A DNA stretch of 64,000 nucleotides, from assembly GCF_004310395.1 (NCBI RefSeq), contig NZ_BFAX01000001.1:186001-250000 (forward strand), in the 5' to 3' direction. The stretch comes from Methanofervidicoccus abyssi. Its GTDB lineage: Archaea > AGJL01 > Methanococci > Methanococcales > Methanococcaceae. A program made the position numbers and the translations under genes. This document shows, one piece after another, positions 52,254 through 55,740 of the stretch; position 1 is the first letter of the stretch, and every line of letters starts with the position of its first letter. Under the pieces are notes generated by a model. That model saw nothing but the letters and a program-made list of their open reading frames with translations. It did no database searches and had not been told where the DNA came from.

Positions 52254-53243
52254 TTACTTTAATTTCAACTTTTCCGAATATTTCTTTATCTCTTCTAACT
52301 TCTCCAACACCTTCCCACTATCTATCGCATTATTTACCATCTCCACTGCTTCTAGATAATCTGATACCATCCCACAGGTGTAGAGAACTGCAGATGCATT
52401 CAGTACTATAAAGTTTCTATCCTCGTTCCTCTTACCAGATAATACCTTGAGTATCCTTTTTGCACTCTCCTCAGGACTGTGACATGGTACTATCTTCGAT
52501 CTCTCCAATCCAAAATCACTGGGAGATAGAGTATATGTCTCAATTTTATTTCCTACCACTTCACATACCTTTGATGGCCCTCTTGGATCCAACTCGTCGA
52601 GGCCATTTCCATGAACTACAAGGGCTCTCTTAACCCCCAACAACTTTAAAGCTTCCCCAACCTTCTCCACCAGATCTGGGGCGTTAACACCTACCATCTG
52701 ATACTCTGGATTTGCTGGATTTGTTAGAGGTCCTAAGATGTTAAATATAGTTCTTATACCTAACTCCCTCCTAATAGGCATGATCTTCTTTAGGGCTGGG
52801 TGATATTTTGGAGCAAAAAGAAAGACGAAGTTCGTCTTCTCTATCATCTTCTTTGTCTCTTCAGGTGGGACATCTATTTCAACACCTAGAACCTTCAATA
52901 CATCTGCAGAGCCACTTTGTGAGGTAACAGATACATTTCCATGTTTTGCAACCTTTGTGAATGCTGAGAGTATTATAGACACAGCTGTACTTACATTTAC
53001 AGTGGAAGATCTATCTCCTCCAGTACCACAGGTATCTACTATACCTCTACCGAGATTCACCTTAATAGCCCTATCTCTCATAGCTCTTGCAAAACCTGCA
53101 ATTTCCTCAGAAGTAACACCTTTAGTCTGAAGTGCTGTAAGGTAGGCACCTATTCTTACGTCGCTCTCCTCGAGTAGTGTGTTAAATAAGTTGTAAGCTT
53201 CTTCAAAAGATAGATTTTGGCCTTCTACGATTTTACTCAACAT
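52254..53243 (-). CDS. trpD: Anthranilate phosphoribosyltransferase
   Basis: A 329-aa enzyme that links anthranilate to PRPP in tryptophan synthesis. Diagnostic parts are VDTCGTGGDRSSTVNVSTAV, FLFAPKYHPALKKIMPIRRE and RTIFNILGPLTNPANPEYQM. GGAGGTCAGGTT precedes the ATG. About 240 bases separate it from trpC upstream, so the two may not be one transcript. Confidence 0.96.
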   Translation of the reverse strand: MLSKIVEGQNLSFEEAYNLFNTLLEESDVRIGAYLTALQTKGVTSEEIAGFARAMRDRAIKVNLGRGIVDTCGTGGDRSSTVNVSTAVSIILSAFTKVAKHGNVSVTSQSGSADVLKVLGVEIDVPPEETKKMIEKTNFVFLFAPKYHPALKKIMPIRRELGIRTIFNILGPLTNPANPEYQMVGVNAPDLVEKVGEALKLLGVKRALVVHGNGLDELDPRGPSKVCEVVGNKIETYTLSPSDFGLERSKIVPCHSPEESAKRILKVLSGKRNEDRNFIVLNASAVLYTCGMVSDYLEAVEMVNNAIDSGKVLEKLEEIKKYSEKLKLK

Positions 53244-53485: not shown

Positions 53486-54178
53486 TCAATATAACTTAGC
53501 ATCCACAAAACTTTTGACGAAATTTAAGGTATCTTCAGCTCTCATAAAACTTGTACCTATAAGGGCTGCATCTGTATACTTCAGAGCTACCTTTAGGTCT
53601 TCTAAGGTGGAGATACCACTTTCACTGACAGAAACAACACCCTTTGGTAGATACTTGGATAACTTCTCTGTGAGGGATACGTTACCGTCGTCTCGTTCCA
53701 ACTTGGAAATATCCCTGTTATTTATCCCGATCATAGTAGTGTTAGTCCCCTTAGCTATCTCCATCTCTTCCCTACTATGCACTTCAACTAAGGTATCTAG
53801 CTCATGCTCCAAGGCATAATCAACGAATTCACTAGTTTTCTCCTTTAAGAGCCTTCCTATTAGTAGTATTGCACTTCCTTCCGCTTCTGCAGTTCTCTCT
53901 ATTTCCTCCTTTGATGTAATAAAGTCCTTCCTCAATACAGGGAGATCTGTAGAAGCACATATCTTTTTAAAGACGTTAAAATCCCCCCTAAAGTACCTTT
54001 TATCTGTAATATAAGATATACCTGCAACCCCAGCCTCCTCGTATATCCTAAGAATATCTATCTCATTTCTACCTCTAAGTAGATCGCCATGCTTAGGAGA
54101 AAAAACTTTTATCTCGGCAATAATTGGATTTTTGCCCTCTTTCTTTTTACTCACTATAGATTTTGCCATCCTGTACAT
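53486..54178 (-). CDS. trpC: Indole-3-glycerol phosphate synthase
   Basis: A 230-aa TIM barrel that forms indole-3-glycerol phosphate. Landmarks are IIAEIKVFSPKHGDLLRGRN, ISYITDKRYFRGDF, DLPVLRKDFITSKEEI, MIGINNRDISKLE and SVSESGISTLEDLK. The start ATG at 54178 has GGTGATTTC upstream and lies only 4 bases after the MCP gene, so trpC is the third gene of the ODP-MCP operon, an unusual partner set for a tryptophan gene. Confidence 0.95.
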   Translation of the reverse strand: MYRMAKSIVSKKKEGKNPIIAEIKVFSPKHGDLLRGRNEIDILRIYEEAGVAGISYITDKRYFRGDFNVFKKICASTDLPVLRKDFITSKEEIERTAEAEGSAILLIGRLLKEKTSEFVDYALEHELDTLVEVHSREEMEIAKGTNTTMIGINNRDISKLERDDGNVSLTEKLSKYLPKGVVSVSESGISTLEDLKVALKYTDAALIGTSFMRAEDTLNFVKSFVDAKLY

Positions 54179-54182
54179 GAAA

Positions 54183-54965
54183 TCACCTGAGCTTGACTAC
54201 TTTTTTATCCCCTTCATTTATAGCCAGTTGAACCAGCAGATTCCCTAACTTCCTGTTAAATTTCTCCTGCATCTTATTGAAATTCTCCATTGCTATCGAT
54301 ATACCACTTAAACTTTTGATATCATGAACGAATCTCTCCTGGTCTTTTGTAATCTTATTTAGTCTGTTGTTTATCTCTACGATCTCGTTGATATCCTTTG
54401 CCAGCATTTTTGTTCCTTCTTTTGTCTTATCTATAACATTTAACACATCCTTTAGTACTTCGAGATCTCTCATAACTTCGGAGTTGAATTTTTCAATCTC
54501 CTTCGTCAGCTTCATAGTTTGATTAGCCATCTCTCTAATTTCATTTGCTACAACTGCAAATCCCCTCCCAAATTCGCCAGCCCTTGCGGCTTCAATGGAT
54601 GCGTTTAGGGCTATTAAACTGGTATGTTTTGCAACATCGTTTATTGAACTACTCATCTTGGATATATATTTTAAATTCTCGACGAGACGGTTAAACTCCC
54701 TTGCGAATATCTCCAGCTTCTGAAAGAATGGTAGAAAATCGTCTCTAAATTTTTCTAGATCTTCTATAATCTCAGATAAATTCTCTATATTTTCAACTAT
54801 CATCTCGTTATTTTTTACAAAATGCTCACTAATATCTGTTACTAGGTTGTATATTATCTTGGACGTTTCTTTATTTGCAGATTCTATACGGACTGCATCT
54901 GCAAAAATATCTGAAACTATATGTAAATTGCTGTTATCTTTATCCTTGTCAAGATTTTTCTTCAT
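54183..54965 (-). CDS. Soluble methyl-accepting chemotaxis-type receptor
   Basis: A 260-aa all-helical protein without any transmembrane segment. Residues about 112-150 are the MCP hairpin tip ([38 protein letters not shown]), which contacts CheA and CheW. The first 110 residues are helical with no PAS, HAMP or other recognisable sensor domain, so sensing must come from a partner. That partner is probably the ODP protein encoded 4 bases upstream. CheA/CheW are not in the window. GGTGATTAT precedes the ATG. Confidence 0.85.
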
Positions 54966-54969
54966 ATAA

Positions 54970-55740
54970 TCACCTTATTAGATCTGTACCACACTTCAAA
55001 TTACTTAAGAAGTTGAAGAACTTGGTAATATGCTTTCTTGGAATAATCCCCCCATGCTGTGGGACAATTGCTTCTATATCTAAATTTCTAACTCTGTCAA
55101 CCCAATGTCTCAGAGCGTGATTATTTGCCATCAATCTTTCATGTAACGGCTTCATAGCTTCGATATGTTTATCTATGTCTTCGATTATTAGGGACGGTTC
55201 CTCCAACATAGCTATTCCAATATCACCGGTAAATAGGAATTTACTCCGTCTATCGTAGATAGTGAAATGTCCAGGACTATGGAGAAAGTGGGCAGGTATG
55301 AATTCCAAGGTCGTTGTACCAAAGGATATCTGCTCGCCTTTATCTGGTAGTGGATGTGCTACACTGTCAACATCCTCAAATCCAAAATGTGGCAAGAACC
55401 TTATCCACAACCAGCTTGTAACAAGTTTTGCATTTGTTATAGCCCTCCAGAGTGGAATACTACCTGCTACATCTGGATCCTGGTGACACATGTATATATA
55501 CTCTATATTTTTAGGATTTATATATTTAGAGATATTGGATAGGACTTTTGGAAATATCTTATATCCTCCTGGGTCCAGCAAAAATCCTCTCTTTTTATTT
55601 ACTATTAAATAGCTGTTGATATCCACATCCCCACTACCTGACATATTTGTCCCAAGATAAACTACTAGATGGTCATCATCTCTATAGAGAACATGGTCTT
55701 TTCTTGGATCTAATCCATATTTAAGGTTGTACGTTGCCAT
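54970..55740 (-). CDS. Di-iron ODP sensor (metallo-beta-lactamase/flavodiiron fold)
   Basis: A 256-aa protein with the flavodiiron-type metallo-beta-lactamase fold but no flavodoxin domain. Metal ligands visible are H86, D88 and D90 ([11 protein letters not shown]), H154 (HFLHSPGHF), D173 ([10 protein letters not shown]) and H229 (VPQHGGIIP). This matches the ODP family, shown in Treponema to be a di-iron oxygen/iron sensor for chemotaxis. The adjacent MCP gene supports the same role here. GGGGATAAA precedes the ATG. Confidence 0.8.

What the first reader, a model, noticed from the sequence alone, without database searches (positions are those of the whole stretch)
54183..55740. ODP di-iron sensor and soluble chemoreceptor encoded as a pair, with trpC as third gene
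Seen: a membrane-free MCP with an intact signalling tip and no sensor domain of its own is encoded 4 bases downstream of an ODP-type protein with all expected metal ligands (H86, D88, D90, H154, D173, H229), and trpC follows by another 4 bases. Known: in Treponema, ODP senses O2/Fe(II) and feeds chemotaxis. Inference: in this methanogen the two proteins form a cytosolic oxygen or iron sensing unit for avoidance of oxygen. The link of a tryptophan gene is unexplained. No CheA/CheW is in the window.
Basis: partly seen in the sequence, partly recalled or inferred. Interest (0 to 1): 0.7.

Follow-up and report, generated by a model that had tools for sequence, protein, structure and literature searches.

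The report
Archaeal oxygen/iron sensor for chemotaxis
A heat-loving methane-making archaeon carries a two-gene unit, an iron protein expected to bind oxygen and a soluble chemotaxis receptor with no sensor of its own; this pairing was already described in bacteria and archaea, is kept together in 50 of 50 relatives checked here, and its neighbouring tryptophan gene is a recent accident of gene order.

Summary
On the minus strand lie an ODP (54970-55740), a membrane-free, sensorless MCP (54183-54965) and trpC (53486-54178), with 4-base gaps. The ODP model matches the solved T. maritima and T. denticola ODPs (41-44% identity). All six named ligand residues are present, plus the ODP-specific Gln228. 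The genome has cheW, cheB, cheA, cheD, other MCPs and archaellins, all outside the window. ODP orthologues occur in 9 of 36 Methanococcales genomes and all 9 have the MCP beside them; so do 30 of 30 Thermococcales and 11 of 11 Aquificota orthologues of this clade. The pair tracks chemotaxis genes (Thermococcales 27/30, p = 6e-14), whereas solo ODP paralogues do not (p = 0.89). In one Thermococcales genome without CheW/CheA, a metal ligand is mutated (H154R) and the MCP has lost its N-terminal helix. Partner MCPs carry no consensus methylation site. trpC is linked in only three close relatives; elsewhere it forms a trpC-trpD pair. Best reading: a cytosolic O2/Fe sensor feeding CheA, a new member of a known kind. 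A later paper describing the original ODP study reports ODP-MCP operons and recruitment in bacteria and archaea, so novelty is modest. Ligand and sign of response are untested.

The parts
54970..55740 (-). ODP: single-domain metallo-beta-lactamase-fold di-iron protein, 256 aa; predicted ligands H86, D88, D90, H154, D173, H229 plus ODP-specific Q228
   Evidence: PF19583 6.5e-73; PDB 6qnm/6qrq 6e-69/1e-62; fold match 6qwo TM 0.87; ligand conservation
54183..54965 (-). Soluble sensorless MCP, 260 aa helical hairpin with intact signalling tip; no transmembrane helix, no consensus methylation motif
   Evidence: PF00015 2.9e-27; best PDB hit 3g6b 1.3e-17; model H9-128/H130-259, low confidence; motif and hydropathy scan
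54963..54980 (-). ODP-MCP junction: AGGTGATTATATG, Shine-Dalgarno-like AGGTGAT overlapping the ODP stop codon, 4-base spacer
   Evidence: sequence
54176..54190 (-). MCP-trpC junction: AGGTGATTTCATG, same overlap of ribosome-binding-like site with the stop codon
   Evidence: sequence
53486..54178 (-). trpC (indole-3-glycerol phosphate synthase), 230 aa; linked to the pair only in this genome and two close relatives
   Evidence: NF001376 328.7 bits over cut-off 284; neighbourhood comparison
52254..53243 (-). trpD, ancestral downstream partner of trpC (trpC-trpD overlap or abut in most family relatives); here 242 bases away
   Evidence: TIGR01245

Best explanation
ODP and the sensorless MCP are a two-protein cytosolic chemoreceptor. 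The ODP di-iron site (H86, D88, D90, H154, D173, H229, probably with Q228) would bind Fe(II) and then O2. ODP would dock on the membrane-free hairpin MCP, whose standard tip binds CheW/CheA of the single che cluster, and so change CheA activity and archaellum switching. Partner MCPs have no consensus methylation sites, so adaptation, if any, would come from reversible O2/Fe binding or from neighbouring methylatable receptors. Shown here: gene identity, ligand set, fold, gene coupling, che and archaellin genes in the genome, and co-distribution with che. Inferred from the characterised Treponema/Thermotoga ODPs: O2/Fe binding, contact with the receptor, control of CheA. Not known: sign of the response. 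trpC is an incidental passenger.
For: Closest solved relatives are ODPs named chemotaxis sensors, by sequence and fold. Ligands are invariant and ODP-specific residues are kept, distinct from flavodiiron proteins. MCP lies directly downstream in 9/9 Methanococcales, 30/30 Thermococcales and 11/11 Aquificota clade members. ODP and partner-MCP distances correlate at r = 0.96 over 50 pairs. The genome has cheW-cheB-cheA-cheD-mcp and archaellins. Che association: 9/9 Methanococcales (p = 0.003), 27/30 Thermococcales (p = 6e-14), 11/11 Aquificota (p = 0.007); solo ODPs show none (p = 0.89). Decay of both genes in G107, which has no CheW hit. Literature: TDE2496, genetically coupled to ODP, lacks TM and sensing modules and modulates CheA, and deleting ODP alters CheA ordering in arrays (PMC7666581); [quoted passage not shown]
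Against: No direct evidence of O2 or Fe binding, contact with the MCP or CheA control in any archaeon was found. Clade A is a sister group of the clade holding the characterised Td/Tm ODPs, so ligand preference could differ. Two Thermococcales (G088, G119) keep an intact-length pair without a CheW hit; these may be incomplete assemblies (not checked). Genomes are phylogenetically non-independent, so the p values overstate. Four Methanococcales partners have a changed tip (EAERAKE).
Confidence: 0.8

Rival explanations
1. The ODP is an O2- or NO-detoxifying enzyme like the flavodiiron proteins, and the MCP neighbour is incidental.
For: Same superfamily; flavodiiron proteins are 26-32% identical over the core; strict anaerobes need O2 removal. 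In this genome one flavodiiron paralogue is reduced to a fragment with stops.
Against: No flavodoxin domain to supply electrons (256 aa); the HxExDH motif is replaced by HxDxDV and Ser/Ala by Gln228; MCP adjacency is universal in the clade and presence follows che genes; another full-length flavodiiron protein exists in the genome.
Confidence: 0.07
2. The unit works in chemotaxis but the physiological signal is Fe(II), NO or another small molecule, not O2 (a variant of the best explanation, not exclusive of its signalling part).
For: The Td protein is described as both an Fe(II) and an O2 sensor (title of Muok et al. 2019, cited in PMC10653840); hydrothermal habitats, suggested by the hosts of the clade, are iron rich (general knowledge); clade A is separate from the characterised ODPs.
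Against: The ligand set is identical to the O2-binding Td/Tm ODPs.
Confidence: 0.3
3. trpC is functionally part of the unit (for example taxis linked to tryptophan or indole metabolism).
For: 4-base gap with an AGGTGAT site overlapping the MCP stop codon, the same design as the ODP-MCP junction; kept in three genomes.
Against: Six of nine Methanococcales with the pair, and the two Thermococcus and one Aquificota loci read in full, have no trpC there; in same-genus genomes trpC sits directly before trpD without ODP-MCP.
Confidence: 0.04

Closest known systems
T. denticola ODP (TDE2498) with MCP TDE2496
   Same: Single-domain ODP with the same ligand residues, genetically coupled to an MCP lacking TM and sensing modules (PMC7666581)
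   Different: 44% identity; belongs to the other ODP clade; the locus tags suggest a different gene arrangement (not checked); host swims with flagella, not archaella
T. maritima ODP (6qrq/6qwo) and the soluble MCP of PDB 3g67/3g6b
   Same: Best fold match TM 0.87 and best PDB match of the MCP; that 3g67/3g6b is the T. maritima soluble receptor is from memory
   Different: 41% identity; other ODP clade; partner MCPs of the Methanococcales share a conserved FRxDFLPFFxKLExF segment in the N-terminal helix not seen in the aligned part of 3g6b
Flavodiiron proteins (FprA, F420H2 oxidase)
   Same: Same beta-lactamase-like di-iron fold
   Different: Flavodiiron proteins have an additional flavodoxin domain, HxExDH and Ser/Ala instead of HxDxDV and Gln

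Membership tests
ODP (oxygen-binding di-iron protein) | Single MBL-fold domain, no flavodoxin domain | tested here: met
   256 aa, PF19583 covers 39-230; fold 6qwo TM 0.87
ODP (oxygen-binding di-iron protein) | Ligand set HxDxD...H...D...H with the motif-2 His lost and Gln before the last His | tested here: met
   H86, D88, D90, V91, H154, D173, Q228, H229; Gln substitution described in PMC7785958
ODP (oxygen-binding di-iron protein) | Gene coupling to a sensorless cytoplasmic MCP | tested here: met
   50/50 clade members
ODP (oxygen-binding di-iron protein) | Reversible O2 binding as a stable peroxo di-iron adduct; effect on CheA | not testable with these tools
   needs purified proteins
Cytoplasmic chemoreceptor (MCP) | Antiparallel hairpin with conserved CheA/CheW-binding tip | tested here: met
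   PF00015; tip nearly identical to canonical MCPs of the genome; hairpin model (low confidence)
Cytoplasmic chemoreceptor (MCP) | No transmembrane segment | tested here: met
   highest 19-residue hydropathy 0.59 against 3.49 in a canonical MCP
Methyl-accepting receptor in the strict sense | Consensus Glu/Gln methylation sites | tested here: not met
   0 of 12 in the hand-curated set and 0 of 42 partner MCPs in the survey (some overlap between the sets); a canonical G000 MCP has two. The consensus used is bacterial, so atypical sites are not excluded
Functional che pathway in the host | CheA, CheW, archaellum genes | tested here: met
   CheY, CheR and CheF were not searched

The most novel reading that the evidence does not exclude
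Clade A (Methanococcales, Thermococcales, Aquificota) is a distinct ODP-MCP subfamily shared by horizontal transfer among chemotactic thermophiles: a receptor without methylation sites that reports Fe(II)/O2 directly to CheA and adapts, if at all, without methylation of its own, docking ODP on the conserved FRxDFLPFF segment.
Probability: 0.3. Interest if true: 0.5.

Novelty: new member of a known kind. Interest (0 to 1): 0.33.

Why it matters
It gives strict anaerobic methanogens a plausible, testable route to sense traces of oxygen or free iron and steer, without a heme or PAS domain. Co-distribution with che genes and joint decay where they are missing are independent genomic support, in archaea, for a mechanism worked out biochemically in bacteria.

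Tried and rejected
The original ODP paper (Muok 2019 PNAS) is not held; its content is taken from papers that describe it (PMC7319448, PMC6978683, PMC7666581). The pattern-based genome-contig scan found only six loci; whole-order and whole-phylum searches then found the rest. A small 14-sequence ODP tree gave poor support; the larger tree separates clade A from the clade holding Td, Tm and the solo ODPs. trpC as a functional member was rejected. The AlphaFold model of the MCP has low confidence (mean pLDDT 62) and was used only for the hairpin topology. CheY was not identified; genome searches were exhausted. Complex prediction of ODP with MCP was not possible.

Full report
Observation. The three minus-strand genes are as described: ODP 54970-55740, MCP 54183-54965, trpC 53486-54178, each pair separated by 4 bases. 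At both junctions an AGGTGAT Shine-Dalgarno-like motif overlaps the upstream stop codon, which suggests translational coupling (inference). The ODP hits PF19583 at 6.5e-73, the solved ODPs of T. denticola and T. maritima at 6e-69 and 1e-62, and its predicted structure (pLDDT 83) matches T. maritima ODP with TM 0.87. Gln228 is present too: a Gln at this motif is reported to replace the usual motif-2 histidine as a ligand in T. maritima ODP (PMC7785958; that Gln228 is the matching residue is inferred from the alignment). It is invariant in paired ODPs, whereas the flavodiiron proteins examined have Ser or Ala there and HxExDH instead of HxDxDV. The MCP has only the signalling domain, no hydrophobic segment, an intact tip, and is modelled as one long hairpin at low confidence.

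Pathway. CheA and CheW are outside the window, on contig C3, in a cluster cheW-cheB-cheA-cheD-mcp. The genome has further canonical MCPs and archaellins in an archaellum-like gene cluster. CheY, CheR and CheF were not searched.

Comparative test. True ODP orthologues occur in 9 of 36 Methanococcales genomes; all 9 have the soluble MCP directly beside the ODP and all 9 have CheW/CheA. Beyond the order, ODPs of the same clade occur in 30 of 94 Thermococcales and 11 of 136 Aquificota genomes, again with the MCP immediately downstream in every case. Distances between ODPs and between their MCPs correlate at r = 0.96 over 50 pairs, as expected if the two genes travel together (shared phylogeny contributes). 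A second group of single-domain ODPs in Thermococcales, and many in Aquificota, has no adjacent MCP; in Thermococcales these act as an internal control. Presence of the paired ODP follows che genes there (27 of 30 che-positive, against 7 of 64 genomes without it, p = 6e-14), the solo ODP does not (9 of 31 against 25 of 63, p = 0.89). Shared ancestry inflates the first p value, but the same genomes give no signal for the solo ODP. One Thermococcales genome without any CheW hit (G107) keeps a damaged pair: H154R in a metal ligand and a partner MCP without its N-terminal helix. Both genes thus appear to have decayed there along with chemotaxis.

Adaptation. None of 12 hand-curated and none of 42 surveyed partner MCPs carries the consensus methylation motif, while a canonical MCP of this genome has two. 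If real, the receptor does not adapt by its own methylation.

trpC. It follows the pair only in G000, G027 and G028. In same-genus genomes without the pair, and in G026 and G033 that have the pair elsewhere, trpC directly precedes trpD. In G000 and G028 trpC and trpD are separated by a few hundred bases. The simplest account is that the pair came to lie upstream of trpC in one lineage and that read-through is tolerated (inference).

Known or new. [quoted passage not shown] In T. denticola, ODP is genetically coupled to a sensorless MCP that modulates CheA, and loss of ODP changes CheA ordering in arrays (PMC7666581); ODP is said to interact conformation-dependently with its receptors (PMC6978683). 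This locus is therefore a new member of a known kind. What this analysis adds (not found in the papers read) is the separate clade A shared by Methanococcales, Thermococcales and Aquificota, its co-distribution with che genes against the solo ODPs, the decayed example, the missing methylation motifs and the dismissal of trpC.

Limits. Everything about ligand binding, ODP-MCP contact, CheA control and the sign of the response is inferred from bacterial homologues.

Noticed in passing
L115 (G107, Thermococcales): Decayed ODP-MCP pair in a genome without a CheW hit: ODP H154R and MCP lacking its N-terminal helix.
   Followed up: partly
L165-L183 (Thermococcales): Solo ODP paralogues have a conserved upstream gene of about 264 aa (only a sub-threshold CoxG-like Pfam hit) and usually a further gene of about 105 aa with no Pfam hit; a possible ODP system of unknown output in genomes mostly without chemotaxis.
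   Followed up: partly
L189, L191, L192 (Aquificota): Solo ODP gene overlapped by 4 bases by a 678-683 aa gene downstream; the L189 product is GGDEF-EAL, suggesting an ODP-regulated cyclic-di-GMP enzyme.
   Followed up: partly
L043, L044, L045, L046: In the second family of Methanococcales the partner MCP tip reads EAERAKE instead of EAARAGE, although the canonical MCPs seen in this family keep EAARAGE or EAARAGD.
   Followed up: no
G000:C3:269312-269479: Remnant with two stop codons of the flavodiiron protein that is intact in G026 and G028; a second full-length flavodiiron paralogue remains at G000:C4:45769-46962.
   Followed up: no
L040:11633-12070 (G028): An unidentified 145-aa ORF lies between trpC and trpD in G028, where most same-family relatives have overlapping or abutting trpC-trpD.
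   Followed up: no
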